Source of the DNA: Gemmatimonadetes bacterium bin94
GTDB lineage: Bacteria; Gemmatimonadota; Gemmatimonadetes; Longimicrobiales; Gaopeijiaceae
Assembly: GCA_002238865.1 (NCBI GenBank)
Contig: MPNE01000036.1
Span: forward strand, 1 to 38,160
DNA: 38,160 bases
Reading direction: 5' to 3'
A program made the position numbers and the translations under genes. Position 1 is the first letter of the stretch. Each line of letters begins with the position of its first letter. This document shows, piece after piece, positions 5,268-31,102 of this stretch. The notes beneath the pieces are model-generated. The model worked only from the letters and a program-made list of their open reading frames with translations, searched no databases and was not told the DNA's origin.

Positions 5268-6197
5268 ATGGAATTGGACGACGGCCCAGTGCCCTACAAA
5301 CGGTTTCGCGAGGAGCCCTACGGCCGAAGACTGAAGGCGCTACTCCAAGTCAAGGGGGATCTGCTCCAAAAGGAGTTTCTCGAATCTGTCCGAGATCGGC
5401 GAACGTTTGTCAACTACATGTCGGAACTTCCAGTCGACGGAATCCGAGAGGTGCCGCTGTGGGACAAATCGATATCGGAGCACGACTTCCGTGCGTTGCC
5501 CCCGGAGCTCGAATTGAGTCTCTACCGGCGATGGTGGCAGGTTCCCCCCGAGGTGGCCAGCCGTTCGGGATTCTGGGGCTACGTGACCACTTGCCATGTC
5601 GGGGCAGGCACAATCGACTCGACACACCTCGCCGCCACTAATCGCCTCCCCGGTGTGTCGGCAATCGATCAGGCGCTAGCTGAAGATGCGCCACTAATGA
5701 TCGACCGTTGTGTTCGCACGGCATTGCGGCGCCTAGGCGGTCTCCGGCCGGCCCGCGGCCACCGCAGTGTGTACGTCGACTGCATGTTTGCGCGGGCATG
5801 GTGGCGAGAGCGCATGGTGGAGGAAGCCACTAGCGAGGTCGCGGATCGCGTCCGCGCCCTTTTTCGGCTAAAGGGAAAATCCCTCTGGGAAGACCTGATC
5901 TCCCGTCTGATCGACGAGGACGGCGTTTCCGTGTTCGGGCCGATGAACGTCCCCAGCGGTGTCCGCAGTGCTCTCTTCCTCTCTCTCGCCCGGCATCTGA
6001 CGGGTGAGCCCAGATCGCCTCTAGCGCAATCTCATCAATTGCGGCACGTCTTCCAACAGATTGCCACCTACCAAGCAACCCCTGGCCTCGGTCCTGCCGA
6101 TGATCTGGAACTCGCCAATATCGTCAGAGCGATTGTGAGAGCTCGGGATTCGAGATCCTTACACTGGGACGACGAGCAGGAAGGCGACCGCGAGTAG
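5268..6197 (+). CDS. Uncharacterised protein upstream of the phosphorothioation operon (possibly DUF6339-like)
   Basis: 309-aa soluble protein starting at an ATG with a usable ribosome site (AAAGG). There is no signal peptide or membrane segment. It is rich in Arg and Trp: LYRRWWQVPPEVASRSGFWGY (its first 20 residues span about 87-106) and DCMFARAWWRERM (about 170-182). The FW...(R/K)WW arrangement reminds me of DUF6339 proteins, which occur near bacterial defence genes, but I cannot confirm that from the sequence alone. It precedes the cysteine desulfurase by 221 nt on the same strand, so it may be an accessory or regulatory member of the defence locus, or an independent passenger. No catalytic motif is recognised. 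Confidence 0.6.
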   Translation: MELDDGPVPYKRFREEPYGRRLKALLQVKGDLLQKEFLESVRDRRTFVNYMSELPVDGIREVPLWDKSISEHDFRALPPELELSLYRRWWQVPPEVASRSGFWGYVTTCHVGAGTIDSTHLAATNRLPGVSAIDQALAEDAPLMIDRCVRTALRRLGGLRPARGHRSVYVDCMFARAWWRERMVEEATSEVADRVRALFRLKGKSLWEDLISRLIDEDGVSVFGPMNVPSGVRSALFLSLARHLTGEPRSPLAQSHQLRHVFQQIATYQATPGLGPADDLELANIVRAIVRARDSRSLHWDDEQEGDRE

Positions 6198-6418
6198 TGT
6201 ACCCTCCATGACACGTGCGTCCGGAGCATCTGTACGCGTCCCCCCGTTCGGTTGGCTCCTCTGTTTGCCGTGATCGAGGGCCGCAAAGCCTGCGGAACGC
6301 GAGTCGCACTTGAATCGGTCGGATACGCCATCGATTTGGCGGAGGTCAGGGGAACTTCGGCGTTGACCGCAGATCGTCCGCCCTTCCAACCGACGCCCGG
6401 TTCCCCTATCCTTAGGAC

Positions 6419-7675
6419 ATGCCGAACGTAACCCGAACTGAGTCCGAAGCCTCCACGTTGTTGGACGAAGCTCCGACTCTGCGGGCGGGGCGGCATGAAT
6501 CGCAGGGGCGAGACATCGCCCGAGAGATCTACCTCGACTACAACGGGTCGGCGCCGCTCGACCCGCGTGTGGCTGACGTCATGATCCCGGTTCTCACCGA
6601 GCGATCAGGGAACGCGTCGTCCAGTCACGCTTTTGGACGCCGACAGGCCGCGCTCGTTGACGACGCACGCGAGCAGGTCGCGGCTTTGGTCGGTGGCCGT
6701 CCAAACGGCGTCGCCTTCACCGCTAGCGCCACCGAAGCCAACAATCTCGCTCTACGGGGGGCTTTGGAAGGCGCGCCGACAGGCCGAAACCGGATCCTGG
6801 TGTCGGCCGCCGAGCATGCGTCGGTATTGCGCACCGCAAAGTGGCTCGCGGACCGGCGTCTGGTACGCTTGGATATCGTTCCGGTCACCGAAGGCGGTTT
6901 TGTCGATCTGGCCGAGCTTGACTCGCTTCTTGGATCAGATGTTCTGTTGGTGTCGGTGATCGCGGCCAACGCGGAGACTGGGGTGATGAACCCACTCGCT
7001 GAGATATCCGAAATGGTTCGCGGGTCCGGTGCCCCGCTCCACTCGGACGCCACGCAGTTCGTGGGGCGGATGCCGCTGGCGATGGACGAGTCGGGTATCG
7101 ATCTCGTTTCGCTAAGCGCACACAAGATCTGTGGTCCCGGTGGTGTGGGAGCCCTGGTGGGCAACCAACGGGCGCTCCGCCGACTGCGGCCGCAGATACA
7201 CGGCGGGGGCCACGAAAAGGGCCTACGGTCCGGTTCGCTGAATGTCGCAGGGATTGTTGGAATGGGCGCCGCAGCACATCTTGCCTTTGAGGAGCGCGCA
7301 TCGGAATCCCGAAGGGTGGGACGACTCCGTGATCGTTTCACCCAAGCCCTGAAGGCGAGATTGCCTCGTATCAGCGAGATCGGAGATGTGAGTTGCCGCC
7401 TTTCCAACACAGCCAACCTCCGCTTTCACGGTGCTGACGCGGATGCAGTAGTGGTCAACATGGATCCGGTCGCTGCATCAACTGGCAGCGCGTGCAGCTC
7501 GGGGTCGATCGAGCCGTCCGACGTTCTGTTGGCAATGGGCCTGTCGCGAGACGCAGCGTTCGAGTGCGTCAGATTCAGCTTGGGGCGCTTCACTACCCAG
7601 GCGGACATTGACCTGGCTCTGCCTCGAGCAGTTGAGGCTGTCGCGCGCGTTCGTGGTCTGTCAGGGGACGAGTAG
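6419..7675 (+). CDS. sspA: Cysteine desulfurase of the DNA phosphorothioation system (SspA/DndA/IscS-like)
   Basis: PLP enzyme that takes sulfur from L-cysteine as a protein persulfide and supplies it for DNA backbone phosphorothioation. The core starts with IYLDYNGSAPLDP after a variable leader of about 35 residues, so the true start could lie downstream of 6419. Visible family features: TASATEANNLAL, SAAEHASVL, the PLP lysine at about 236 in SLSAHKICGPGG, HGGGHEKGLRSGSLN, and the catalytic cysteine at about 359 in STGSACSSGS. The length (418 aa) is normal. The assignment to the Ssp/Dnd branch rather than general Fe-S assembly rests on its neighbours: it is followed with no gap by a DUF4007 gene and further on by a PAPS-reductase-like gene. 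It is the first gene of the tight operon. Confidence 0.9.
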   Translation: MPNVTRTESEASTLLDEAPTLRAGRHESQGRDIAREIYLDYNGSAPLDPRVADVMIPVLTERSGNASSSHAFGRRQAALVDDAREQVAALVGGRPNGVAFTASATEANNLALRGALEGAPTGRNRILVSAAEHASVLRTAKWLADRRLVRLDIVPVTEGGFVDLAELDSLLGSDVLLVSVIAANAETGVMNPLAEISEMVRGSGAPLHSDATQFVGRMPLAMDESGIDLVSLSAHKICGPGGVGALVGNQRALRRLRPQIHGGGHEKGLRSGSLNVAGIVGMGAAAHLAFEERASESRRVGRLRDRFTQALKARLPRISEIGDVSCRLSNTANLRFHGADADAVVVNMDPVAASTGSACSSGSIEPSDVLLAMGLSRDAAFECVRFSLGRFTTQADIDLALPRAVEAVARVRGLSGDE

Positions 7676-8668
7676 ATGAGGTTGGTCGATGCCGCGGTCC
7701 CCATGTTCGCCCGACACGAGACCTTCCACCCTCGCTACGGTTGGTTCCGGAAGGCGTACGCCCAAGTGGCCGCGGACCCGCGCGCCTTCTTCGGGGACGA
7801 TGCGCCAGTTCGGATCGGGGTGGGAAAGAACATGGTTCGCGCGATCCGCTTCTGGGGGCTAGCTGCCAAACTGATTGCGGAGGATCCTCACTCTCCCAAC
7901 CCAAGGTCCCCTGAACTGATAACGACGCCGTTTGGTGACGCTCTGTTCGGTGAGAGTGGATGGGACCAATACATGGAAGACCCGGGCACCCTCTGGCTAC
8001 TCCACTGGTTGCTGCTGGCTCCACCAAGTCACGTGCCCATCTGGTGGCTCGCCTTCAATGAATTCCACGCCGTGGAGTTTACTGAGGACGACCTGCAGGC
8101 GGCCGTGGACACGCAGCTCGACTTTGCCGCGGAGTGGCGGAAGCCGCATCTCTCGTCAATCAAGAAAGATGTTGGTGCGTTGCTGCGTACATACGCGCCC
8201 CGCGAGCGGCGGGGGCGGGTGCCAATCGACGACATTCTGGACTGCCCGCTCCGCGAACTGAATCTCATCGGCCGGTCTCCCGGTCTCGGGCGATACCGGT
8301 TTGCCGTGGGAACAAAGGTGACCTTGCCCTCGGCTATCTTGGTCTACGCGCTCTTGGATTACCTCCGTCGCATGGACGTCGGTGGAACCACGATCACCGT
8401 CAGTCAACTCGCCCTAGCACCAGGCTCGCCCGGCAGAGCATTTAGACTCAGTGAGTCCGAGATGATTACCGCAATTGAGGGCACGGTAGAACGGAGTCCC
8501 GGACTAGATCTGGTCGCCGCGACCGGCGGCGTCCAACTCGCCTGGTCCGACGATCTAGAACGGCTAGGCAGGCAAACCCTCGATGATTACTACGGGTTGC
8601 TGGGCTCTGGCGGGCCAGAACGTAGGCAACCCGACCAGCTAGCCCTCGCCGCCGTCGGGGACCGCTAA
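7676..8668 (+). CDS. sspB: DUF4007 protein, SspB-like
   Basis: 330-aa protein of the DUF4007 family. The diagnostic opening FARHETFHPRYGWFRKAY (residues 11-28) and GVGKNMVRAIRFW (about 49-61) are both present, followed by the helical DUF4007 body (LWLLHWLLL, WWLAFNEF, SIKKDVGALLRTY). In SspABCD systems the DUF4007 protein SspB takes part in single-stranded phosphorothioation and has been described as a DNA nickase. The ATG directly follows the stop of the desulfurase gene, with a ribosome site (AGGGGA) inside the end of that gene. The next gene starts 2 nt after its stop. I name it SspB from family and order; the activity is not tested here. Confidence 0.85.
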   Translation: MRLVDAAVPMFARHETFHPRYGWFRKAYAQVAADPRAFFGDDAPVRIGVGKNMVRAIRFWGLAAKLIAEDPHSPNPRSPELITTPFGDALFGESGWDQYMEDPGTLWLLHWLLLAPPSHVPIWWLAFNEFHAVEFTEDDLQAAVDTQLDFAAEWRKPHLSSIKKDVGALLRTYAPRERRGRVPIDDILDCPLRELNLIGRSPGLGRYRFAVGTKVTLPSAILVYALLDYLRRMDVGGTTITVSQLALAPGSPGRAFRLSESEMITAIEGTVERSPGLDLVAATGGVQLAWSDDLERLGRQTLDDYYGLLGSGGPERRQPDQLALAAVGDR

Positions 8669-8669
8669 G

Positions 8670-11600
8670 ATGCCGACACTCGCTGACCACGTACGGATTC
8701 TGCCGCGTTTCGCAAGGTCTGCGAACCTCGAGCGCGACACGGGGCGTTCACAGCCTATGGAGGGGTACGTCGTCACTGCCCGAGCCCTCGAAGCCGTCGA
8801 ACGGATTCTCACAGTTGCCGCAACCCAGCAAGCAGGAGGGGCTTGGTCGCTTACCGGCCCGTACGGCTCTGGCAAATCGTCGCTAGCTCTTCTCCTGGAT
8901 GCCCTACTTGGGCCAGACGGGGCGACAAGGGATGCAGCAGTTGGGCTTGTGGAAGCGGCAAACCCCGACATGGCGGACTCGGTGTGGATAGCTCACGACA
9001 ATCACCGAACGCAGGAACCCGGCTTCCATCGGGGCCTCGTAACCGCAGCGCGCGAACCACTGAATCTCACCGTCCTTAGAGGCCTTCACGGTGCCGTACT
9101 GGCAGCATTCGGCGAGATTCCCTCCGGGCGCCGTTTCCCGGCTGCCGGTGCGCTCAGAGCGGCGTTGAGCGACGCGGCTAGCGAGGATCCCCGCCGTACC
9201 GGCCCCTCGCCAGCGGCCCTGATAGAGGTTGCGAAGTGCTTGGCCAGCGACAGGCCCCTCTTTCTGGTAATCGACGAGTTTGGAAAAAACCTCGAAGCGA
9301 TCGCCGACAGTAGCGACGGGGACCCCTATCTGCTTCAGCAACTCGCCGAAGCGGGCCAAGGCTCAGGCCTCCCCATCTTTCTGATGACGCTGCAGCACCT
9401 TTCGTTCGAGGACTATCTGGCGCAGACGGAGGGACCGCAACGCCGCGAGTGGGCAAAGGTACAAGGGCGTTTCGAATCCATCGCCTACGTTGAATCCGCG
9501 AGCCAGACCCGGGCGTTTATCGGAACCGTGTTTCAGGCAGATGATGGGATCCGCAATCGTATCAACGACTGGGCCGAGCGGCAAACGGCTACAATGCGTT
9601 CCTTGGGAATCTCGGAAATGAGCGACCCTGACGTGATAGCGTCGTGCTATCCACTCCATCCCTTGGCGGCGACAGTCCTACCGGAGCTGTGCAACCGATA
9701 TGGGCAGCACGAACGAACCCTGTTCTCGTTCCTGACGAGCGCCGACCCAGCGAGCGCAGCCTCCTACCTGGGGGCGACGATGCTACCACCTGAGGGCGAG
9801 CTTCCGTCTTTGGGGCTTGCTGGCATCTACGACTATTTCGTGGCCAGCGGAACAATGGCGGGCGTTCCTTTCGACCAAGGCCGCTGGACGGAGATTGCAA
9901 CGCGCCTGCGTGACGCTCCCAACCTTACCGGGGCTCAAAGGCGTCTGGCCAAAGCCATCGCCATTCTGAATCTGGTTTCAACGACCGGTGTGATTCGCGC
10001 GTCCAAGCGGCTCCTCGCCGAGGCAGAATCCCACGCCGACGATCTCCTCCGGGATCTGGAAGTAGCCGGTGTCGTCACCTACCGAGATTTCTCCGACGAG
10101 TACCGTATCTGGCAGGGCACCGACGTCGACATCCATCGGCTCCTGTCGGTTGCACGGAAGGAGACGCAAGGGCGCTCGCTTGCTGCGGTACTGTCGGAGA
10201 CCGAAGATCCCAAACCGGTGGTGGCTGCGAGGCACAGCGCGGAACACGACGTGCTGAGGGTTTTCGTCCAGAAGTACGTCGCCGGCGGAGAGCTGGTTGA
10301 GCCGCTCGATCCGTTTTCCGACTACGACGGTCAGGCTCTCTTGGTGGTCGGACAGGGCGGGTTGCCGCGTCTGGCGAAGTCGTCCAAGGCAGCCAAGCCC
10401 GTAGTGGCCGCGGTGCCAGAGGATGTAGCTGCACTGGATGAGGCCGCGCGCGAACTAGCTGCCGTGAAGTCGGTGTTGGAGGATCCAGCAGTCGAAGAAG
10501 ACTGGGTGGCACGGCAGGAGGTCAGCGAGAGGCTCGCCCAGGCCCAGATGCACCTCGATCGAGCGATCGTGGCGGCGTTTGGGGCGGGCCGTTGCCGATG
10601 GAAGTTGTTGGCCCACCCGGGGTATCGCGACCTAGAGGGGGGGCGCGGAAGCGCGGCCATTTCCAGCGCTTGTGACATCGCTTACGAGTCCACCCCGTCG
10701 GTGGGCAACGAGATCCTCAACCGTACGGCTGTGACTTCACAGGGTGCCAAGGCGCGCCGCATACTGCTGGAAGGCATGATTGAGAGGGGCGACACCGAGC
10801 AATTGGGTCTTGAGGGCCACGGGCCGGAAGTCGCGATGTACCGGGCGTTCCTTGGTAGAACCGGGCTTCACGGGCTCGAACCGCAAGGGTCCCGCTGGAT
10901 CTCTCGCCCACCCACCGACGAGAAGCTCCAGCCAGCTTGGAAGTTGGTCGAGGGCGAGTTCGAGCGGGCCACCCAACGCCGGGTCAATCTTCGGGACATC
11001 TACGCCAGTCTGCTATCGCCGCCGGTGGGAATGAAGCGCGGGGTCATTCCAGTGCTCGTGACAGCCGCTCTGTTGGTGCGAAGTGAGGACATCGCCGTGT
11101 ACGAGCACGGCACGTTCGTTCCCGTGCTGACGCCAGCACTCTCCGAGCGGATGGTCCGGAACCCGGGACACTTCGAAGTCAAGCACTTTGCCAATACAAC
11201 AGGGGCCCGCCTCCAAGTGATAGAGGCCATCGCGGAACGAGTGGGTGTGAGGCCGGGACTCGGGCAGGTCCGGGTCGCCAATGTCCTCGGCGTTGTAGGT
11301 CAGCTAGTTGCTCAGGCACAGCGTATGGACAACTTCACACGCAGAACGGACAGCTTGAGTGACGCGACGATCAGAGCCAGGGAAGCCCTTTTCACCGCTG
11401 TGGAGCCCGACGAACTCCTGTTCCAGAGTCTGCCGCACGCGCTCGGAATGCCCGAGGTCCCTGCTTCCGCGAACGACTACCCAGCGGCCAGGACCTACGC
11501 GATCAGGCTCGTCGAAGCGGTGAACGAACTCGTGGGCTGTGCGGACGAACTGCTTGAGCAGCTCTTCAAAGACCTATTGAATGCGAGCGGTGAGACGTCC

Positions 11601-12131
11601 CGCCAAGCGATCACCGGCTTCGCCAAGTCGCTCGAAGACGAAGTTCTCGATCCTGAAGTTCGAGCTTTCGTTCTCACGCTCGCCAACGACACCGTGGATA
11701 CCGATGCCGACTGGGTGGACACGATCGCGACGGTGGTTGCCGGAAAAGCTCCATCTGAATGGATCGATCGGGACCGCGCCCATTTCCGGCACGTGCTGGG
11801 CCGCCGGGTGGAGTCGTTTCTGCGTCTCGTGGCTCTCCACGCCGATCACGGTGCTGATGGTGGGGGCCCGTTCAAGCCCTTCCGCCTGACGCTCACGCGT
11901 CCCGATGGCAGAGAGCACGTCGCGCTGGTTGGGGTCGATGATAGGGATCAGCAAATGGTCAGCGGTGTCCTTGACACGGCTATGGGCGAACTAGTAGCTA
12001 CAGTGGGGTCGGAGAAGAGAGGGCTCTCGGCGTTGATTGCGATCATCGCCGAACGACTTCTCCCCTCCGAGGATGTGGCGGATGACGAAACCGGGGCCCA
12101 TCTCACCACAAACACTGTGCGGAATGCCTGA
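8670..12131 (+). CDS. sspC: Large P-loop ATPase, SspC-like
   Basis: 1153-aa protein, the largest of the core. The N-terminus has a clear Walker A, GPYGSGKSS (about 63-71), and a Walker B, LFLVIDEFGKNLEA (about 197-210), of the AAA/STAND-like kind. The remainder is long and mostly helical, with no motif I can assign. Gene order (desulfurase, DUF4007, ATPase, PAPS-reductase-like) identifies it as SspC, the ATPase partner needed for single-strand phosphorothioation. The start ATG overlaps the TAAG end of the previous gene by one-base spacing, and its 3' end overlaps the next gene by 8 nt, so translation is probably coupled on both sides. It is longer than a minimal ATPase, and the C-terminal two thirds may mediate contact with DNA or with SspB and SspD. 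Confidence 0.8.
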   Translation: MPTLADHVRILPRFARSANLERDTGRSQPMEGYVVTARALEAVERILTVAATQQAGGAWSLTGPYGSGKSSLALLLDALLGPDGATRDAAVGLVEAANPDMADSVWIAHDNHRTQEPGFHRGLVTAAREPLNLTVLRGLHGAVLAAFGEIPSGRRFPAAGALRAALSDAASEDPRRTGPSPAALIEVAKCLASDRPLFLVIDEFGKNLEAIADSSDGDPYLLQQLAEAGQGSGLPIFLMTLQHLSFEDYLAQTEGPQRREWAKVQGRFESIAYVESASQTRAFIGTVFQADDGIRNRINDWAERQTATMRSLGISEMSDPDVIASCYPLHPLAATVLPELCNRYGQHERTLFSFLTSADPASAASYLGATMLPPEGELPSLGLAGIYDYFVASGTMAGVPFDQGRWTEIATRLRDAPNLTGAQRRLAKAIAILNLVSTTGVIRASKRLLAEAESHADDLLRDLEVAGVVTYRDFSDEYRIWQGTDVDIHRLLSVARKETQGRSLAAVLSETEDPKPVVAARHSAEHDVLRVFVQKYVAGGELVEPLDPFSDYDGQALLVVGQGGLPRLAKSSKAAKPVVAAVPEDVAALDEAARELAAVKSVLEDPAVEEDWVARQEVSERLAQAQMHLDRAIVAAFGAGRCRWKLLAHPGYRDLEGGRGSAAISSACDIAYESTPSVGNEILNRTAVTSQGAKARRILLEGMIERGDTEQLGLEGHGPEVAMYRAFLGRTGLHGLEPQGSRWISRPPTDEKLQPAWKLVEGEFERATQRRVNLRDIYASLLSPPVGMKRGVIPVLVTAALLVRSEDIAVYEHGTFVPVLTPALSERMVRNPGHFEVKHFANTTGARLQVIEAIAERVGVRPGLGQVRVANVLGVVGQLVAQAQRMDNFTRRTDSLSDATIRAREALFTAVEPDELLFQSLPHALGMPEVPASANDYPAARTYAIRLVEAVNELVGCADELLEQLFKDLLNASGETSRQAITGFAKSLEDEVLDPEVRAFVLTLANDTVDTDADWVDTIATVVAGKAPSEWIDRDRAHFRHVLGRRVESFLRLVALHADHGADGGGPFKPFRLTLTRPDGREHVALVGVDDRDQQMVSGVLDTAMGELVATVGSEKRGLSALIAIIAERLLPSEDVADDETGAHLTTNTVRNA

Positions 12132-12975
12132 CGACGCCACTCGGCACATCTGCGGAATCTCTGGAGGCAAGGACTCCAGTGCGCTCGCGGTGTACCTCCG
12201 GGATACCGTCCCCGAGATGGAGTACTTCTTCTGCGACACCGGGGCCGAGCTTCCCGAAACCTACGAGTACCTGACTCGCCTCCAGGTCATTCTTGGCAAG
12301 CCGATCGAACGCTTGAATGCGACCCGCGGATTCGATCACTGGTTCGAAGTCTTCCGGGGAGCCCTACCGTCCCCGCAGATGCGCTGGTGCACGAAGAACA
12401 TGAAGATCAAGCCGATCGAAGAGTGGATCGGCGATACGCCCGCTGTATCATACGTCGCGATCCGGGCTGACGAGTCGAACCGCAAGGGGTACATCTCCAC
12501 CAAGTCGAACATTCAAACCCGCTTCCCTTTCGTTGAAGACGGGATCGACCGGGACCGCGTCATGAGGATTCTGGAGGATGCGGGAATCGGGCTTCCGAAA
12601 TACTACGAGTGGAGGACGAGATCGGGTTGCTATTTCTGTTTCTATCAGCGTAAGGCCGAGTGGATCGGTCTCGCCGAACGACATCCAGAGCTATTCGAGA
12701 GAGCTGTAGCTATCGAGCAAAAGGTGCTTCAGGACGCTGGGGTTGCCGGTGACGCCGACTTTCGGGATCGGGCTATGCGGGGACGGCAGTACACATGGTC
12801 GGGCGGAGAGACGCTCACCGAGCTAAAGGAGCGGAAGGGGGAGATTCTCGAACGGCACGAGTCCGCAATGTCAAGAGTCAAGAACACGAAGAGGAACCTT
12901 CCCTTGGTTCAAGCCTTGGGGGACGCGTTGGACGACGAGGACGATACGATACCCTGTACGATGTGTGCTTTGTGA
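12124..12975 (+). CDS. sspD: PAPS-reductase-like ATP pyrophosphatase, SspD/DndC-like
   Basis: 283-aa protein that activates the DNA phosphate for sulfur insertion, as DndC and SspD do. The PP-loop SGGKDS is at residues 13-18. RWCTKNMKIKPIEEW (Cys 89) and SGCYFCFYQRKAEW (Cys 169 and 172) give cysteines expected to hold an Fe-S cluster, and the protein ends in CTMCAL. The frame is open from 12037, but the ATG at 12124 is preferred: it overlaps the SspC stop by 8 nt and puts the PP-loop at the usual distance from the N-terminus. The ribosome site is weak, in keeping with coupled translation. The next gene begins within its stop codon. Confidence 0.9.
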   Translation: MPDDATRHICGISGGKDSSALAVYLRDTVPEMEYFFCDTGAELPETYEYLTRLQVILGKPIERLNATRGFDHWFEVFRGALPSPQMRWCTKNMKIKPIEEWIGDTPAVSYVAIRADESNRKGYISTKSNIQTRFPFVEDGIDRDRVMRILEDAGIGLPKYYEWRTRSGCYFCFYQRKAEWIGLAERHPELFERAVAIEQKVLQDAGVAGDADFRDRAMRGRQYTWSGGETLTELKERKGEILERHESAMSRVKNTKRNLPLVQALGDALDDEDDTIPCTMCAL

Positions 12976-15080
12976 GCCAACCACTCGCCGAGGGTGCCTC
13001 TTCCGAGGATGCGCCTGGACTCGCCCCATGGGGCAGCCCGCCCACACCTCTATTGCCACGCTGGTATCGAGATAACCTTCCGAACGTACGGGTCTCCGCC
13101 AGGATCCGGAAAGAGAATCCGGCTGTCGTTACCATAGGGCACCTCGAGAAATTCTGGGACGGCAGATCGGTACCCATCGGCGACCCCGCCCTGCGCTCGT
13201 TGCTATACATTGCAAACACTTATCCTCCGCCCACTGCGCTGGTTGTCATACCGGCGGAGATCGACAGGGCTGAGCTCTTGGCCCTTCCACTCCGTACCCG
13301 AACGGCAAGCGCCCTGATCCAAAGTGGGTTTCTCAGAGATTCGGGCCCCTTGTCCGTGCAGGACTTACTCGCCATCCGCGGCTTCGGAATGGGCTCGCTC
13401 TTGGACCTGATGTGCGTCGCCGAAGCTGCGCCACTGGTTCGGTCGGAAGTCTCAGTTCCCGCAACAGCCGCGGGGACTCCGGATGTTGTCGGCAAGGGTA
13501 CGGCGTGGCGCGAACTCACGGATGTCCTGGAACTTCTGCTTGCCGCAGCCAACGAGTTCCACGGAGCGGTCACAGTTGGCGACGCTTTGGAACTCGATCT
13601 AGTGGAGTTAGCCACGGACTTGGGAATCGCTCAGGCGGTCGACTCCCACAAGATAAGAGACCTGACCGACGTCGGCATCTTGGTTGGTGTGATTGATGCG
13701 ATCCGTGACCTGCGGACAAACATGCCTGAGCGCAAGCTAGTGATCGTTGAGCAGTATCTGTACGCGCGTACACGGGCGACGCTCGCAGAGCTAGGACAGA
13801 CCTTCGGCGTCACTCCGGAACGAATCAGACAGGTCAAGAACAGGATCGCCGCAGAGATAGAAGAGCTTGTGGGTCCCGAGATTGCGATCATAGCAGCCAT
13901 CCTTAGGCGGAAGGCTGGCCTCGTCGTGCGTGACGACGACCTGCGCCGGCTACTGGACACCCTTTTCGAGTATGAGTCCATCCATGACCCAGCCGTCGCT
14001 CTTACGCGCCGAATCGTCGAAGCGGCGCTAGAGTATGACTCGGAAAGAGGCGTATGTGCCAACCGCGAGGCCAGAGAGATTCTGGACGGATTCTGCAAGC
14101 ACTCGGCGGCGCTTTCGGATGACGTCGGACTCATTGATGAGGAGGCTCTGCGGGCATCCCTTCCCGATGAGGAATGGCGCCGGCTCTTCGAACTAGTGGT
14201 CGAACGATCTGGCCTCGTGCGTATCGGCGATCGATTGGCGCTACGCTCCACCAAGAAGGCGCGCGCGAAGGGGGCGATTCTCACAATCGGGCGGCCGGCC
14301 ACACTTGATGAGATCGTGGCGGAGTCGGGCCTCCCACGAACTAATCTAGGTGGGCTGCTTTCGGGTATCGCGGGGATTGTGCGGGCGAGCAAGACGAAAT
14401 GGGGGATTGAGGATTGGATCGAGGATGAATACGAGGGGATTGTTACGGAAATAAAGCAGCGGATCAAAGAAGATGGTGGCTTCACGACCCTGGACCGGCT
14501 GGTTACTGAGTTGCCGGAGATGTTCGAGGTAAAGGAGGCCAGCGTACGGGCCCTGGTGGCAACCCCACAATTCCTCCTGCGGGACGGCATTGTGAGCTTG
14601 GCGGAGGAATCGGAGGTGGCGCTGCGAGATATCGATGACGTCGCTGATGGTGTGACAGCGGAGGGATGGCCCTATTGGAGTTTCCGGATTCACGAGAGAT
14701 ACTTCGACGGGTATAGTCTCGCTGGGGTCCCGCCGGAGATTGCTCGCGCGCTAGGATGCCCAAAGAACGGTAGCATTAGGGCGGTTGTTTCTCGACCTAC
14801 CGGCTGTAGACGGATCTCAGTCAATTGGCATTTGGCGTCCCTGTCGGGGGCAAGTGTGGGCTATATCTCGACATCGCTTAGCCGCCTAGGAGTCGCGGAA
14901 GGTGATCAAGTACGCTTGGTCGTGGTGAAACCCCGCGTCGTCGAGTTTCGGTTGTTCGATCCGGAACCCGGTAGAAGGGAAAGGCGGAGGAGTGCTGGTG
15001 CGGTGCTGACGGCAAGGACAGGCGACACGAGAACGGCCGTTCTGCTGGAACGATTGAAACGTCGGCGGCAGGTGTTGTGA
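12972..15080 (+). CDS. DNA-binding protein with HhH/alpha-CTD-like and sigma region 4-like domains; candidate SspF-position gene
   Basis: The preferred start is the GTG at 12972, which overlaps the SspD stop as GTGA and gives 702 aa; the frame upstream of it is read-through of SspD. Residues about 110-150 (RTRTASALIQSGFL, LSVQDLLAIRGFGMGSLLDL) resemble the helix-hairpin-helix of the RNA polymerase alpha C-terminal domain. Residues about 266-292 (TLAELGQTFGVTPERIRQVKNR) form a sigma-70 region 4 type helix-turn-helix. The C-terminal half is helical and unassigned, with a final small beta domain (VNWHLASLSGASVGYISTSL). A sigma/alpha-like DNA reader inside a phosphorothioation operon is odd for a transcription factor and may instead recognise DNA for modification or restriction. 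Its family and exact match to known SspF are unverified. Confidence 0.7.
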   Translation: MSQPLAEGASSEDAPGLAPWGSPPTPLLPRWYRDNLPNVRVSARIRKENPAVVTIGHLEKFWDGRSVPIGDPALRSLLYIANTYPPPTALVVIPAEIDRAELLALPLRTRTASALIQSGFLRDSGPLSVQDLLAIRGFGMGSLLDLMCVAEAAPLVRSEVSVPATAAGTPDVVGKGTAWRELTDVLELLLAAANEFHGAVTVGDALELDLVELATDLGIAQAVDSHKIRDLTDVGILVGVIDAIRDLRTNMPERKLVIVEQYLYARTRATLAELGQTFGVTPERIRQVKNRIAAEIEELVGPEIAIIAAILRRKAGLVVRDDDLRRLLDTLFEYESIHDPAVALTRRIVEAALEYDSERGVCANREAREILDGFCKHSAALSDDVGLIDEEALRASLPDEEWRRLFELVVERSGLVRIGDRLALRSTKKARAKGAILTIGRPATLDEIVAESGLPRTNLGGLLSGIAGIVRASKTKWGIEDWIEDEYEGIVTEIKQRIKEDGGFTTLDRLVTELPEMFEVKEASVRALVATPQFLLRDGIVSLAEESEVALRDIDDVADGVTAEGWPYWSFRIHERYFDGYSLAGVPPEIARALGCPKNGSIRAVVSRPTGCRRISVNWHLASLSGASVGYISTSLSRLGVAEGDQVRLVVVKPRVVEFRLFDPEPGRRERRRSAGAVLTARTGDTRTAVLLERLKRRRQVL

Positions 15081-15081
15081 C

Positions 15082-17325
15082 GTGTTCAACCGAGACACCG
15101 TGATCCCAGGATTGTATCGGCTTCCCGAGGACCCCGTTGGCCCGAGAGTCCTCATCCCTAGCTTTGTTTCCGCGACAGCGGTGCGAGGAGCATTTGGGTG
15201 GTTCTCAGCGGGCTGGATCGCGCGACTTGCTCCGGGTTTGGCGGAGTACATCGATCGGCGCGGCACTTCTCCGATCGACTTCACCGTGGCGCCGGTCTTA
15301 TTCCCGGCAGAGCGCGAAGCTGCAGAGCAGGCAGTATCCCTGACTCCGGATGAGGCGAGCCGCAGGGTTGTCGATGTGTTCCACCAAGGCAGCGTGAACG
15401 TGTCCGCCCTCGCCCAACATGCTTTGGATTGCCTTGCTTGGATGATTGCCACGGAAACACTGCGCCTCCGGATCGCAGTACCGAAGGCCAATTCAAACTA
15501 TCATCCCAAGATATGGTTCTTCGATGACGGGACCGATCAAGTGCTTGCTCGGGGGTCGGGCAACGCTACGGCCCGCGGGATCACCAGCGGCGTGGAGCAT
15601 TTCGACGTAGACGTGACGTGGATTGGACACAGCCGACAGCGCGTTCGCGACGGCATGGCGATGCTTGACGACTGGTCTCAAGGAAAGAGCCAAGGCATCG
15701 AGCGCGTCGTCGACTTAGCTCAAGCTCTAAAGGAGGATATCATCCAGACCGCCCCGGAATCCCCACCTAGTCCGGCCGATTACGTCCAAGCGGCCGCGGA
15801 CGACGACGATCCCGGATGGGCGGTTGACGTAGCCGCACGACTAACCGCTCGCTTTGGCCGAAAAGTGACCCAAGAACGCCCGCGCTTGGCAATCCCCGAT
15901 GGCCTCGTGTGGAAGGCAGGCCCATACCGCCATCAAGGCGAGGCCATCGCGGCTTGGGAGTCCGGACCCAATCCTGAACGCGGCACGATCTCGATGGCCA
16001 CCGGCGCCGGAAAGACCATCACTGCCTTGATCTCCGCTACTCGCCTCCAAGACCGCCTACAGGGGCAGCCGCTACTTGTGGTCATATCGGCACCATCGAT
16101 CCCGCTGATTCAGCAGTGGCACAGCGAGGTAGGAAAGTTCGGCGTCCAAGCTGTCGTGCCGACACTTGAGACCAATACGAACATGGCGCTCACAAACCTG
16201 TTCCGCAGATTGCGTGGCGGTGGCACTCACGTCGTGATCGTCACCAACCACCTGGTTTCGTCCCCTAGCTTCCAGGCAACAGTAGCACAGAAGACCCCCT
16301 CGACAGACACTCTCTTCATCGGCGATGAAGTGCACACACTGGGTGCCGCAAAGTTCGTGGCGAACAAACCCGGCTTCTTTGCCCGTCGACTCGGTCTTTC
16401 GGCCACACCTGAACGTCAATACGACCCTGACGGAACGGAGGAGATCTTCGCCTATTTTGGTGACCCCGTCTATGCGTTTGGCCTCGGCCGGGCGATCGGT
16501 TTCTGTCTCACTCCGTACAACTACTATGTACACGCCGCAACTCTCGACGACGATGAAGTCGCGCGGTTCGAACGTCTTAGTCAGCGGATCAACGTGGCCA
16601 TGGCTATTGAGGCCAACGACCAGGATGACCAGGACCACGACTCACTCAAGCGCTTGAGGATCCAGCGGCGCAGGGTGATCGAGACAGCTCGAACCAAGAT
16701 CTCGCTGCTCCGAAGGGTTCTTGAAGAACGGGATCCGCGTTCGTTGGACGGTGCCTTGATATATGCGACGGCCAAGGCCCCCGAGCAGTTTGCGAGAATA
16801 GGATCGCTTCTAACCGATCTCGATATACGATGGGCTCCTGTAACGCAGGAGACCACCGCACGACCCAAGCTGCTCGCAAGCCGTCTAACGGCCTTCTCTG
16901 AAGGCGGCTACCAGGTGCTGTTGGCCAAGAAGGTCCTCGACGAGGGTGTAGACATTCCGCGAATCCGCGAAGCCTTCATTGTCGCTTCGTCCACAGTAGA
17001 GCGAGAATGGATCCAGCGCAGAGGTCGAGTCCTTCGACGCCACTGCGATAAACCATATGCGCTCGTCCACGATTTTCTTGCGCTGCCACCGGCACTACTA
17101 ATCGCCCACGATACTACGAACGTTCAGAAGATCCTTCGCACGGACTTCAATCGCGCTTATACGTTCGCGAAATATGCACGCAATGCGACTGGCGAGAAGA
17201 CGGTGTTTGCTGACTTGGAGCGCATTAGATTGGCATACCAGTCCAATGGCCAAACGTCACTGCTCCTTCAACGTAGCGGTGATTTCTTTATCTCTCCTGG
17301 TACTCCGAGAGGGCCTACATGGTAA
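15082..17325 (+). CDS. PLD-like domain fused to a DEAD/DEAH SF2 helicase
   Basis: 747-aa protein starting at GTG 15082, one base after the previous stop. The N-terminal region carries a phospholipase-D-like half site: HPKIWFF (His about 141) followed by GSGNATARGI (about 157-166), as in PLD-family nucleases that are fused to helicases. The helicase follows: Q-like PYRHQGEAI, Walker A ATGAGKTI (about 305-312), DEVH (about 415-418), LGLSATPER, and motif VI QRRGRVLRR (about 644-652). It is placed between the sigma-like protein and the DndD-like ATPase, the position expected for the unwinding and cutting part of a restriction module. It overlaps the next gene by 7 nt. The fold is clear; the role in restriction is inferred from context. 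Confidence 0.88.
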   Translation: MFNRDTVIPGLYRLPEDPVGPRVLIPSFVSATAVRGAFGWFSAGWIARLAPGLAEYIDRRGTSPIDFTVAPVLFPAEREAAEQAVSLTPDEASRRVVDVFHQGSVNVSALAQHALDCLAWMIATETLRLRIAVPKANSNYHPKIWFFDDGTDQVLARGSGNATARGITSGVEHFDVDVTWIGHSRQRVRDGMAMLDDWSQGKSQGIERVVDLAQALKEDIIQTAPESPPSPADYVQAAADDDDPGWAVDVAARLTARFGRKVTQERPRLAIPDGLVWKAGPYRHQGEAIAAWESGPNPERGTISMATGAGKTITALISATRLQDRLQGQPLLVVISAPSIPLIQQWHSEVGKFGVQAVVPTLETNTNMALTNLFRRLRGGGTHVVIVTNHLVSSPSFQATVAQKTPSTDTLFIGDEVHTLGAAKFVANKPGFFARRLGLSATPERQYDPDGTEEIFAYFGDPVYAFGLGRAIGFCLTPYNYYVHAATLDDDEVARFERLSQRINVAMAIEANDQDDQDHDSLKRLRIQRRRVIETARTKISLLRRVLEERDPRSLDGALIYATAKAPEQFARIGSLLTDLDIRWAPVTQETTARPKLLASRLTAFSEGGYQVLLAKKVLDEGVDIPRIREAFIVASSTVEREWIQRRGRVLRRHCDKPYALVHDFLALPPALLIAHDTTNVQKILRTDFNRAYTFAKYARNATGEKTVFADLERIRLAYQSNGQTSLLLQRSGDFFISPGTPRGPTW

Positions 17326-17546
17326 ACAACTACGACCGTATATACAGAGAACTCCAAGTCGAAGCCCGGCGAATCAGTGAAGACTTGGATATCGATCCTG
17401 AAGCCCTCGCGACCCTGGCTCTGGAGATCGTGGATCTTGAGGATCGGCATCGCGTTTCTCACGTCCACGCCATCCACAAACAGATCCGAGCCCTGATCGA
17501 CGACACGGCGGTTGTGCAAAGAAGGGAGGATTCAGATCGTGATTAG
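17319..17546 (+). CDS. Small 75-aa protein of the phosphorothioation/defence operon
   Basis: Acidic, helix-forming protein (RIYRELQVEARRISEDLDID, LEIVDLEDRHRVSHVHAIHK). The ATG overlaps the helicase stop (ATGGTAA), and its own end overlaps the start of the DndD-like gene by 8 nt, so it is held in a precise coupled chain, which supports it being real. It has no known catalytic motif. It may be a bridging or stabilising subunit for one of its two neighbours. Confidence 0.72.
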   Translation: MVNNYDRIYRELQVEARRISEDLDIDPEALATLALEIVDLEDRHRVSHVHAIHKQIRALIDDTAVVQRREDSDRD

Positions 17547-19791
17547 ATTGCGCCGGATCGACATTCGCAACTTTGTTTGTTTCGACCATATCGTCGTCGA
17601 GCCGTCGGTTGACTCAGAGAAGCGGCTCACAGTCATTAGGGCCGAGAACGGTTCCGGGAAGACCACTTTCCTTCGGGCGATTCGGTGGGGAATGTATGGT
17701 GAGAAGGGGTTGCCTGGTGCCAACACGAAGACGTTCTCGATTCACCCGGCGGACTGGCGGCCAGACCATGAGGGGGGGATCGACACAAAGGTGGAGATTG
17801 AATTCGAGACCGATGGATCGACTCGAGTTCATGCTGGGACGACCGGTCCCACCACGATCTACAGTCTCAAGAGGCGGGTGACTACTATTCCCAATCCCGC
17901 CAGGCGAGATGACCTCCCGGATTACCGACGTGTTCGGGAGACGGAATCGCTTATGAAAAGGGGGCCGGACGGCAATTGGACACCAATACCGCATCCGAGG
18001 AGGGTGATTGAGGAGTTGCTTCCCTGGGATCTCCGGGATTTCTTTGTCATGGACGCTGACAAGGCGGCCGATTTTGTCGGCGGCAGCGAGAACAAGGCAA
18101 TCGCACGTCGAGACGTGATCGCCAAAACCACGAAGGCTGTCCAGAGCCTGCTGGGGATTGGTGTCTTTATGGATGCCACCGCACGAGTCGAACGCCTAGC
18201 GCGTGAGTTCGGCGCGGAAGCAACGAAGGCTATCGGAGATAGCGACCTTGATGCCCTTCAGAAAGAGTTGGAGGAATACAGACAGCAGGAGACGACCGTA
18301 CAGCGAGATTTGGCCGACCAGCGCCGACAACGGCGGGAGTTGGCAGACGCTTTGCGACGAGCGCAGGACAATCTTGAAACGGAAGTAAAGGGCGTGGGCG
18401 CCGCCGAGCAACTTTCCGAGCGTCTTCAGCAGACGCGACAGCGGAGGAAGCAAACCTCGGCGAGTTACGGGAGAACTAAGCTACGGCTTAGTGGGCAATT
18501 GGAGTCGGCTAACCTCCTTGCAACATTGTCCGGACGGTTGGTCAGGAAAGCACATGCGGCGTTGACGCCCCTGCATGATTCTGGAGCGATTCCTCTCAGG
18601 CATCTACAGTTCGTTCGCGCCCTCTTGGACGAGGGCACCTGCGTGTGTGGCCAGCAACTGTCGATCAACGGTGTGCATCGGCGGCATCTTGAGGAGCGTG
18701 TTGCCAAGACTGCCGATCAGGAGCGCCGTGCCGAGTACCTTGGGAGATTGTACGACTCGGCACATGCTTTGGTGCGCACGGGCCAGGCCGCGGAGTGGCT
18801 GAGCCGCACGGAACAACTAGCGCAGGACGCCGTGTCGCTCAGCGACGAGTTGTCGGAGTTGGCACGGCAACAGGGCGAGATCAAAGCCGATTTGGACCTG
18901 ATCGATGAAGACAGGATACAGATGTTGCGTGACGAGATCGACGCTCTGGAGACCCAACTGAATACAGTCACGCACAGGATCGCCGACAATGAGACGACCT
19001 TGCCGACAGTTGTGCAGAACATACGATCCCTGACCAAGAGCATTAATCATCGAACCACAAGAGAGCGAGTCGCACGCGACAAAAAGGCATCCGAGAAACT
19101 TGCAAGCGCTGTGGCAGCGATTCTCAGGCGTGCCTACAGAAGCATAGAGAGCGAACAAGTGGAGGAGCTTTCCCAGCGCATGAATCTGCTGTTCGGGCAA
19201 ATGGCGGCTAACGTGTCCGATGAGGACGTGCTCAACGCGGAGGCAAATAAGGCTACCCTCCGGATGATTGCCGAAGTTGGGGTGCGGCCCGTTAGTGACG
19301 CTGCAGGAGAATACGAAATCTGTGCATTCAACGGGCGAGGTCGCCTGATGCCGCCCATAGAGATCAACGGTGCCTCAAGAAGGGTGCTCGCGCTGTCTTT
19401 CGTGCTAGCACTTTGTAGGGAATCTCGCACCTTTGCTCCGCTGGTCGCTGACTCTCTGCTCAATTTCATGTCGGGGGCAGTGCGGCGAAATACTTTGCTA
19501 GTTACCTCCGAGAACTCTAGTCAACCTATTCTCCTGCTGACGGGTTCGGATCTCGAAGGACAACACGAGGCTGATATTACGACCCGCTATGGTGGGGCGA
19601 CGTATACGCTGACTGGCCAGTGGGATGTTGTTGGCGAAGGCGGTGGCGGAGACGTGGTGAATTACACGGTCAGGCGGCAGGTAGCGATGGTATGCGAATG
19701 TGGGCCGAGGGAGTTTTGCAATGTTTGCGAGCGACTTGGACAACGGGAGTCGCCGGGTTGGACTAGGCGCGAAAACGGAGATCGTGGATGA
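17539..19791 (+). CDS. SMC/Rad50-like ATPase, DndD-related
   Basis: The chosen start is GTG 17539, eight bases after a strong ribosome site (AGGGAGGA), giving 750 aa. Rad50-like opening IRLRRIDIRNFVCFD, Walker A ENGSGKTT (about 36-43). Two long coiled-coil arms (about 230-330 and 420-520) enclose a hinge with CVCGQQL (about 367-373), a partial zinc hook. The C-terminal ATPase lobe is unusual: in place of an LSxGE signature it has INGASRRVLALSFVLAL, and the Walker B region reads PLVADSLLNF rather than ..DE or D(S/T)P. A Cys-rich tail (CECGPREFCNVCERLG) could bind zinc. DndD-like ATPases act in phosphorothioation or in the linked restriction modules. Here the core already has SspC, so a restriction role is more likely. 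It overlaps the last gene by 4 nt. Confidence 0.82.
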   Translation: MIRLRRIDIRNFVCFDHIVVEPSVDSEKRLTVIRAENGSGKTTFLRAIRWGMYGEKGLPGANTKTFSIHPADWRPDHEGGIDTKVEIEFETDGSTRVHAGTTGPTTIYSLKRRVTTIPNPARRDDLPDYRRVRETESLMKRGPDGNWTPIPHPRRVIEELLPWDLRDFFVMDADKAADFVGGSENKAIARRDVIAKTTKAVQSLLGIGVFMDATARVERLAREFGAEATKAIGDSDLDALQKELEEYRQQETTVQRDLADQRRQRRELADALRRAQDNLETEVKGVGAAEQLSERLQQTRQRRKQTSASYGRTKLRLSGQLESANLLATLSGRLVRKAHAALTPLHDSGAIPLRHLQFVRALLDEGTCVCGQQLSINGVHRRHLEERVAKTADQERRAEYLGRLYDSAHALVRTGQAAEWLSRTEQLAQDAVSLSDELSELARQQGEIKADLDLIDEDRIQMLRDEIDALETQLNTVTHRIADNETTLPTVVQNIRSLTKSINHRTTRERVARDKKASEKLASAVAAILRRAYRSIESEQVEELSQRMNLLFGQMAANVSDEDVLNAEANKATLRMIAEVGVRPVSDAAGEYEICAFNGRGRLMPPIEINGASRRVLALSFVLALCRESRTFAPLVADSLLNFMSGAVRRNTLLVTSENSSQPILLLTGSDLEGQHEADITTRYGGATYTLTGQWDVVGEGGGGDVVNYTVRRQVAMVCECGPREFCNVCERLGQRESPGWTRRENGDRG

Positions 19792-20276
19792 ACTATTTCA
19801 AAGCGCAATTGACCAGTCGGGCACATTCTCTATTCCTCCCTGCCAAATGGAAGGACGACATACAACGCTACATCCGTCAACACCAGCAGGGAGCGAGCAG
19901 AGACCCGGAGGTGGCACCCTTCGGACGCCAACTGGATTTCTGGACGCTCGCGTTTGCAACGGCGGTTGCGCGGGGCGTCGCTCCCCTTGAGTCCCGACCC
20001 AGTCAGTGGGGCCGTAAGTTCGTCGATACTCAGAAGGTCGAGATGTCCGACGAGCTTTGCGAGTTGCTCGCCGTCGTGGCTTTAGGTGCCTTGGGTCCCA
20101 ATGACCAAGGCGTTGAAGATCCTGCCCGGATCATTGAACTTGCCAACCAGTATGCCGGCGCCGGTTGTGAAGAACTACTCCTCCGGCTCCGCGACCCGGA
20201 TTTGCGCCTGAGTACGCTCGAAAAGGCGATCGCCTTCTCTAAGGAATTGGCGCAGCCCAGACCCAAGACAGATTGA
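19788..20276 (+). CDS. 162-aa helical protein, last gene of the operon
   Basis: The ATG overlaps the stop of the DndD-like gene (ATGA) and has a ribosome site (CGGAGA). The protein is soluble and largely helical (FKAQLTSRAHSLFLP, ELCELLAVVALGALG, ARIIELANQYAGAGCEELL) with no recognised motif. Its tight coupling suggests a subunit of the ATPase complex. The region after its stop is the first real break in the operon and holds insertion-sequence relics. Confidence 0.72.
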   Translation: MNYFKAQLTSRAHSLFLPAKWKDDIQRYIRQHQQGASRDPEVAPFGRQLDFWTLAFATAVARGVAPLESRPSQWGRKFVDTQKVEMSDELCELLAVVALGALGPNDQGVEDPARIIELANQYAGAGCEELLLRLRDPDLRLSTLEKAIAFSKELAQPRPKTD

Positions 20277-30848: not shown

Positions 30849-31102
30849 CTCCGATGTGGAGTGTGCAGCGATCGCCCTTCCATCCGACCTTATGCACGGT
30901 CGGCATGACCCGCCGACCTCGCAAGTCGTGCCCGGGTCCGCGACGACCCGGATCCGTGGTTTCATCGACCGCGCGAGCCGGTGCGCGGCCGGCTCGCCGA
31001 GCGCCAACCGAAGCTTCATGACCAGCCGCTTGCCCCTGCAACCCTTGCGCGCCAATTTCTGGAAATCGGTGCTGGAAACGTCCCTGCTTCACAGGAGGAC
31101 AA

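What the first reader, a model, noticed from the sequence alone, without database searches (positions are those of the whole stretch)
5268..20276. SspABCD-type phosphorothioation operon with a non-SspE effector set
Seen: desulfurase, DUF4007, large P-loop ATPase and PAPS-reductase-like gene in exactly the SspA-B-C-D order, then five coupled genes (HhH/sigma4-like, PLD-helicase, 75 aa, DndD-like ATPase, 162 aa). Known: SspABCD makes single-strand phosphorothioate and pairs with SspE or SspFGH effectors. Inferred: the five downstream genes are an SspFGH-like or variant restriction module. No DUF262/DUF1524 SspE occurs, and two small coupled genes may be additional subunits not described for the known modules.
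Basis: partly seen in the sequence, partly recalled or inferred. Interest (0 to 1): 0.85.

Follow-up and report, generated by a model that had tools for sequence, protein, structure and literature searches.

The report
Sulfur-mark defence with swapped effector
A bacterial anti-virus operon that is predicted to tag its own DNA with sulfur using the Ssp machinery is joined to a cutting machine (PbeABCD) so far described only with the other sulfur-tagging system, Dnd, plus one undescribed DNA-reading protein; the same pairing recurs across many phyla and may give a large set of 'orphan' Ssp systems their missing weapon.

Summary
Window 6419-20276 holds nine tightly coupled genes: SspA-B-C-D (all strong PADLOC matches), an undescribed 702-aa protein ('g6'), then PbeA-B-C-D. 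The effector is not SspFGH or SspE. Four of the five downstream genes match the archaeal/bacterial PbeABCD module: PbeA is an HxK nuclease plus SF2 helicase, PbeC a CxC-hook ABC ATPase, PbeD has a DndE-like fold, and PbeB is the small gene between A and C. The two small genes are therefore PbeB and PbeD, not new subunits. PbeABCD has been described with DndCDE(A). The pairing with Ssp is not in any paper I could read. It recurs: one strongly supported PbeA clade holds 33 Ssp-linked loci from about ten phyla, 0 Dnd-linked ones, in several gene arrangements. The host genome has no DndC. Gene 6 occurs in 16 of 37 related loci, its sequence distances follow Pbe more than Ssp, and its model is a chain of DNA-binding domains (alpha-CTD-like, sigma-70 region 4, winged helices, a B3/EcoRII-N-like barrel). 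I read it as a fifth, optional effector subunit for DNA recognition. Modification, nuclease action and defence are untested. New variant of a known kind.

The parts
6419..7675 (+). sspA, cysteine desulfurase (418 aa), PLP lysine (SAHK) and catalytic-cysteine motif (GSACSSG) present
   Evidence: PADLOC SspA 4.2e-123, Pfam Aminotran_5, motifs
7676..8668 (+). sspB, DUF4007 (330 aa), triple-winged-helix nickase family
   Evidence: PADLOC SspB 2.1e-100, Pfam DUF4007 6.3e-81
8670..12131 (+). sspC, large P-loop ATPase (1153 aa), Walker A GPYGSGKS
   Evidence: PADLOC SspC E=0, 1026 bits
12124..12975 (+). sspD, PAPS-reductase-like sulfurtransferase with SGGKDS loop (ORF could begin at 12037)
   Evidence: PADLOC SspD 1.3e-109, PAPS_reduct 2.7e-9, motifs and starts
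12972..15080 (+). gene 6 (g6), 702 aa, multi-domain DNA-binding protein: alpha-CTD-like region about 91-152, sigma-70 region 4 about 250-308, winged helices (best tested 426-480 and 485-544), C-terminal B3/EcoRII-N-like barrel about 565-665
   Evidence: Pfam Sigma70_r4; profile to RpoD region 4 E 6.8e-14; model pLDDT 84.7; VIA-align
15082..17325 (+). pbeA, N-terminal PLD-like HxK nuclease (HPKIWFFD) fused to SF2 helicase
   Evidence: PADLOC PbeA 5.6e-152, TIGR04095 1.3e-92, invariant motifs
17319..17546 (+). pbeB, 75-aa small protein
   Evidence: position and size; a pbeB-sized gap between pbeA and pbeC in the related loci
17539..19791 (+). pbeC, Rad50/DndD-like ABC ATPase with CVCG zinc hook in the coiled coil
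   Evidence: PADLOC PbeC 1.2e-45, TIGR03185 DndD 4e-29, CxCG in 36/36 clade members
19788..20276 (+). pbeD, 162 aa, DndE-like fold with two strand-helix-helix repeats
   Evidence: AF2 pLDDT 88.6; DndE structures rank 1-3, Z 8.1/7.2/6.9; TIGR04062 in 4 of 16 members

Best explanation
An anti-phage defence operon that joins the Ssp phosphorothioation module to a PbeABCD-type effector carrying an extra DNA-recognition subunit. Inferred working: SspA takes sulfur from cysteine and passes it to SspD; SspB nicks and SspC drives target selection, placing a single-strand phosphorothioate (5'-C(PS)CA-3' in studied relatives; the motif here is unknown) in host DNA. PbeC (hooked ABC ATPase) with PbeD (DndE-like DNA binder) scans DNA for the marked or unmarked site. 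On foreign DNA this licenses PbeA, which translocates with its SF2 motor and cuts or blocks the DNA with its HxK nuclease, stopping replication; PbeB is a small regulator or linker. Gene 6 is an optional fifth effector subunit that reads DNA sequence or mark status through its sigma-4, winged-helix and B3-like domains. Shown here: gene identities, coupling, recurrence of the pairing, and that gene 6 travels mainly with Pbe. Inferred: all catalysis, the mark-dependence and the gene 6 role.
For: Gene identities. Coupling. No DndC elsewhere in the genome, so only Ssp can supply the mark. Recurrence: six Ssp-Pbe loci in the same phylum, two plasmids, and about 30 of the 80 best genome-contig loci. 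The PbeA core clade is 33 Ssp-linked, 2 linked to an M33 module, 2 cut by contig ends, 0 Dnd, support 100. The modules keep company in several arrangements: Ssp upstream in the same direction, Pbe upstream of Ssp, facing each other, BCDA order. Module border: G004 keeps the window's sspABCD at 82% DNA identity up to the last base of sspD and then carries another gene. Gene 6 follows Pbe: distance correlation 0.70/0.77 with PbeA/PbeC against 0.52 with SspC, n=12; it stays beside Pbe when Ssp is replaced by PDC-M33 genes in L075 and L055, and it is absent from the G004 locus that lacks Pbe.
Against: No chemistry or phage assay was found for any Ssp+Pbe locus. Gene 6 is missing from more than half of the clade, so it is not essential. 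A shorter gene 6 relative sits with SspABCD and no Pbe in G128 (L042). Across-module distance correlation is only moderate (SspC-PbeA 0.36), so Ssp and Pbe have been re-paired often. The n=12 gene 6 correlation is small and may partly reflect two subclades.
Confidence: 0.75

Rival explanations
1. Gene 6 is not an effector subunit but a transcription regulator of the operon: the alpha-CTD-like and sigma-4 regions bind promoter DNA and keep the toxic Pbe genes off until needed.
For: RERxRQ recognition motif of sigma-70 region 4 kept in most members; alpha-CTD-like region; a shorter paralogue in every genome of the genus searched, outside the defence locus; MzaA-like hits in 7 of 19 members.
Against: It lies inside the operon between modification and effector genes, coupled by a 4-base overlap. 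Its distances track PbeA/PbeC closely. A B3/EcoRII-N-type domain, typical of restriction-enzyme target recognition, forms its C-terminus.
Confidence: 0.3
2. Ssp and Pbe are two separate defence systems that merely sit together in a defence island, without functional coupling.
For: The locus lies in an island (integrase; DRT4 reverse transcriptase just downstream); PADLOC has separate models for the two.
Against: Overlapping genes; about 30 loci across phyla in several orientations; a PbeA clade with no Dnd link; no DndC in the genome.
Confidence: 0.08
3. The operon is a variant of BREX type 4, which shares SspB/C/D relatives.
For: SspC, SspB and SspD are homologous to BREX type 4 parts (PMC12839542); SspC also hits BrxC; a PglZ-domain gene exists on another contig.
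Against: No PglZ or BrxL model hit among the operon proteins; SspD matches SspD (1e-109) far better than BrxP (1e-12); the PglZ gene lies on another contig with only a weak model match.
Confidence: 0.03

Closest known systems
DndCDEA-PbeABCD of Haloterrigena jeotgali A29 (PMC6459918; reannotated in PMC10853773)
   Same: Effector: HKD nuclease-helicase PbeA, small PbeB (66 vs 75 aa), CxC ABC ATPase PbeC, DndE-like PbeD (152 vs 162 aa), in the order A-B-C-D
   Different: Modification is SspABCD, not DndCDEA; PbeA belongs to a separate clade; gene 6 sits between the modules
SspABCD-SspE and SspABCD-SspFGH (PMC8092258)
   Same: Same modification module SspA-B-C-D in the same order
   Different: Effector is neither SspE nor SspFGH; that paper left 2,211 of 2,678 sspBCD without either partner
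BREX type 4 (PMC12839542)
   Same: SspB/SspC/SspD relatives, cysteine desulfurase
   Different: No PglZ or BrxL in the operon
MzaA of the MZA system (PADLOC/NCBIfam)
   Same: Sigma-70 region 4 type domain; weak matches to gene 6 members
   Different: Window's gene 6 has no PADLOC match; NCBIfam MzaA match covers only the sigma-4 part; different operon partners

Membership tests
Ssp single-strand phosphorothioation module | SspA, SspB, SspC, SspD in one cluster with catalytic motifs | tested here: met
Ssp single-strand phosphorothioation module | single-strand C(PS)C phosphorothioate in host DNA | not testable with these tools
   needs LC-MS/MS
SspABCD-SspE | SspE (DUF262-DUF1524) in the locus | tested here: not met
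   lone DUF262 gene on contig C80 is Orf5-like
SspABCD-SspFGH | three-gene module with FtsK-like C-terminus in SspH | tested here: not met
   no FtsK-type domain in any of the five downstream proteins; definition from PMC8092258
PbeABCD effector | PbeA: HKD nuclease fused to SF2 helicase | tested here: met
   H and K invariant in the alignment, the Asp variable
PbeABCD effector | PbeB: small protein gene between pbeA and pbeC | tested here: inconclusive
   75-aa gene in place; gap of that size kept in the clade; no sequence comparison with A29 PbeB made
PbeABCD effector | PbeC: CxC-hook ABC ATPase | tested here: met
PbeABCD effector | PbeD: DndE-like tandem ribbon-helix-helix | tested here: met
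   (Z 8.1, 112 residues, 3.5 A to archaeal DndE)
DndCDEA-PbeABCD system | paired with DndCDE(A) | tested here: not met
   no DndC in the genome; SspABCD adjacent
BREX type 4 | PglZ and BrxL with BrxC, BrxP, DUF4007 | tested here: not met
   no PglZ/BrxL model hit among the operon proteins; PglZ gene only on contig C54
MZA (for gene 6) | full-length MzaA match with Mza partners | tested here: not met
   window gene 6 has no PADLOC match; 7 of 19 relatives match weakly

The most novel reading that the evidence does not exclude
Gene 6 gives the effector its aim by reading promoter-like DNA: an alpha-CTD-like region plus a sigma-70 region 4 that keeps the -35 recognition residues would steer a phosphorothioate-dependent nuclease to promoter-type sites on incoming DNA, a way of choosing targets not described for any restriction system I know of.
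Probability: 0.12. Interest if true: 0.85.

Novelty: new variant of a known kind. Interest (0 to 1): 0.62.

Why it matters
Two published surveys each left a large unexplained remainder: 2,211 of 2,678 sspBCD clusters had no known restriction partner (PMC8092258), and 320 of 553 PbeAC pairs had no Dnd partner (PMC6459918). The recurrent Ssp+Pbe pairing may explain part of both. It suggests that one effector type can serve two chemically different marks (double-strand Dnd, single-strand Ssp), with a PbeA lineage that appears specialised for Ssp, and it supplies natural swaps (same Ssp with another effector; same Pbe with another modification module) that make the question of how an effector reads its mark directly testable. 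Gene 6 is an undescribed candidate reader.

Tried and rejected
SspFGH: rejected, no matching domains. SspE: none in the locus. BREX type 4: no PglZ/BrxL in the operon. Fe-S assembly or tRNA thiolation: SspA resembles NifS/IscS but scores below their curated cut-offs, and SspB/C/D fit no such pathway. The 309-aa gene upstream as a part: only one close copy in 23 genus genomes. Promoter/terminator scan: hits no more than chance. Gene 6 in phage records: none; in plasmids only its C-terminal half in mycobacteria; the two such loci I looked at carry no Ssp or Pbe genes. Profile search of PbeD against PDB sequences found nothing useful; the fold comparison did. The gene 6 alignment was too diverse for a viral-contig scan. 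In the first PbeA tree L068 was misplaced because its ORF was cut wrongly; corrected. Taxonomy of the host left open: a relative in the same family is named 'BD2-11 clade', which NCBI lists under Gammaproteobacteria, but the name is also used for another phylum (own knowledge).
Full report
What is there. The window carries, on the plus strand from 6419 to 20276, nine genes that run almost without gaps: spacing 0, +1, overlap, -4, +1, -7, -8 and -4 bases. The first four match SspA, SspB, SspC and SspD of PADLOC at 4e-123, 2e-100, 0 and 1e-109, with DUF4007 in SspB and a PAPS-reductase domain in SspD. Catalytic signatures are present: the PLP lysine and GSACSSG cysteine motif in SspA, the GPYGSGKS loop in SspC and SGGKDS in SspD.

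The effector is Pbe. Gene 7 (15082-17325) hits PbeA at 5.6e-152 and the 'DNA phosphorothioation system restriction enzyme' model TIGR04095; its HxK, GSGN, GAGKT, DExH, SATP and QRRGR motifs are present, and their key residues are kept in relatives. Gene 9 (17539-19791) hits PbeC at 1.2e-45 and carries the CxC zinc hook, found in 36 of 36 clade members tested. Gene 10 (19788-20276) has no family hit itself, but relatives in its alignment hit 'DNA phosphorothioation-associated protein 4'; its AlphaFold model (pLDDT 88.6) has two strand-helix-helix units, and the three DndE structures are its best three matches in VIA-align (Z 8.1, 7.2, 6.9). Gene 8, 75 aa, has the place and size of PbeB. This is the gene set of PbeABCD as described with DndCDEA (PMC6459918) and as reannotated in PMC10853773. 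So the two small genes are not new.

The pairing. PbeABCD has been described with Dnd. Here the genome has no DndC at all, so the adjacent SspABCD is the only candidate supplier of the mark. The pairing recurs. In 395 genomes of the phylum, SspC occurs in 14 genomes, and six loci (including the window and two in one genome) place a PbeA a few kb downstream. An Arabidopsis-leaf Sphingomonadaceae plasmid has SspABCD-PbeABCD collinear with no gene between; a Rhizobium plasmid has the two modules facing each other. Of 80 loci fetched from named genomes with a PbeA profile, 27 hold SspB and SspC and several more are cut by contig ends; they include Latescibacterota, Actinomycetota, Acidobacteriota, Chloroflexota, Poribacteria, Planctomycetota, Verrucomicrobiota, Rhodothermota and Pseudomonadota. 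In the corrected PbeA tree, one clade with support 100 holds 33 Ssp-linked rows, 2 linked to PDC-M33 genes, 2 cut by contig ends and no Dnd-linked row. Outside this clade there are further Ssp-type links (Rhizobium, Alistipes, and SspB-SspC-BrxP variants in Clostridia and Treponema), so the association probably arose more than once. Several gene arrangements occur, which argues against simple hitch-hiking of one operon.

Modularity. Genome G004 of the same genus has the window's sspABCD at 82% DNA identity from 6341 to 12976, ending at the last base of sspD, and then an unrelated 826-aa gene instead of g6-pbeABCD. Conversely, L075 and L055 keep g6-PbeABCD behind PDC-M33 genes instead of Ssp. 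Pairwise distances correlate strongly inside modules (SspC-SspD 0.71, PbeA-PbeC 0.74) and moderately between them (SspC-PbeA 0.36). The window's SspD is nearest to that of G004, which has no Pbe beside it.

Gene 6. The 702-aa product has no PADLOC match. Its profile matches sigma-70 region 4 of RpoD at 6.8e-14, and most members keep the RERxRQ recognition residues. An alpha-CTD-like region precedes it (a relative hits RNA_pol_A_CTD at 1e-4, just under Pfam's cut-off). The model (pLDDT 84.7) continues with winged helices (426-480, Z 8.5) and ends in a barrel (565-665) whose best matches are the LlaJI.R1 N-terminal domain (Z 9.1, 98 residues, 3.3 A), plant B3 domains and EcoRII-N. Z values of 7 to 9 are only moderately above the background stated by the tool; the consistency of the B3/EcoRII-N family in the list is what I rely on. 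Gene 6 is in 16 of 37 other loci of the clade, before pbeA, after pbeD or facing pbeD, and its distances follow PbeC and PbeA (0.77, 0.70) more than SspC (0.52) (n=12). A shorter paralogue, lacking the N-terminal part, is found in every genome of the genus searched and in none of 36 outside it. I infer a DNA-recognition subunit of the effector (about 0.6) over an operon regulator (about 0.3).

Literature. Nine held papers name both SspABCD and PbeABCD. I searched seven of these for the pairing, plus the SspFGH paper and a gut phosphorothioate survey; they list Pbe with Dnd, or as one of several restriction partners, and none reports Ssp+Pbe in the passages shown. Two of the nine were not opened, and subscription papers and supplements were not available, so novelty is 'not found', not 'proved new'.

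Verdict. The gene content is secure; the functional coupling is likely; the role of gene 6 is a hypothesis. Known modules in an apparently undescribed, recurrent pairing, plus one undescribed subunit: a new variant of a known kind.

Noticed in passing
window 20858-22462 (+): DRT4-type defence reverse transcriptase (PADLOC Drt4 2.7e-118) 581 bases downstream of pbeD; with the integrase at 233-1480 this marks a defence island.
   Followed up: partly
L043, L044, L045 (G017, G001, G104): SspABCD followed by a DEAD/ResIII helicase and an MzaB-like GHKL ATPase: another candidate Ssp effector set, neither SspE nor SspFGH.
   Followed up: partly
L042, L046, L047 (G128, G005, G114): SspABCD followed by a DndB-like protein and a SNF2 helicase: a further candidate Ssp effector set.
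   Followed up: partly
L039:4054-6531 (-): 826-aa protein (weak HATPase hit) that replaces g6-pbeABCD directly after an sspABCD 82% identical to the window's.
   Followed up: partly
L075:2628-7063, L055:2109-7948: PDC-M33 genes in the place of SspABCD before g6-PbeABCD; in L075 the M33C protein carries an SspD-like C-terminal part, so M33 may be another phosphorothioation module.
   Followed up: partly
L114, L119, L123: BrxP-like PAPS reductase (tested in L114 and L123), SspB, SspC and an aminotransferase-V gene followed by PbeA: type-4-BREX-like marking genes with a Pbe effector; L114 also has an MzaA-like gene. PglZ/BrxL not searched for there.
   Followed up: partly
G000:C22:60402-61826 and 22 genus genomes: A roughly 500-aa paralogue of gene 6 without the N-terminal part, present in all genomes of the genus searched and in none of 36 outside it; function unknown.
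   Followed up: no
L135, L136, L137 (IMG/VR contigs): SspBCD-PbeA-PbeC loci on contigs called viral; may be proviral islands or miscalled bacterial contigs.
   Followed up: no
window 29760-31055 (-): Weak mad2 (MADS) match, 6.9e-19.
   Followed up: no
G122:C17 and G122:C62 (L032, L031): One genome with two different Ssp-Pbe systems, one of them with the order SspBCDA and a gene 6 relative facing pbeD.
   Followed up: no
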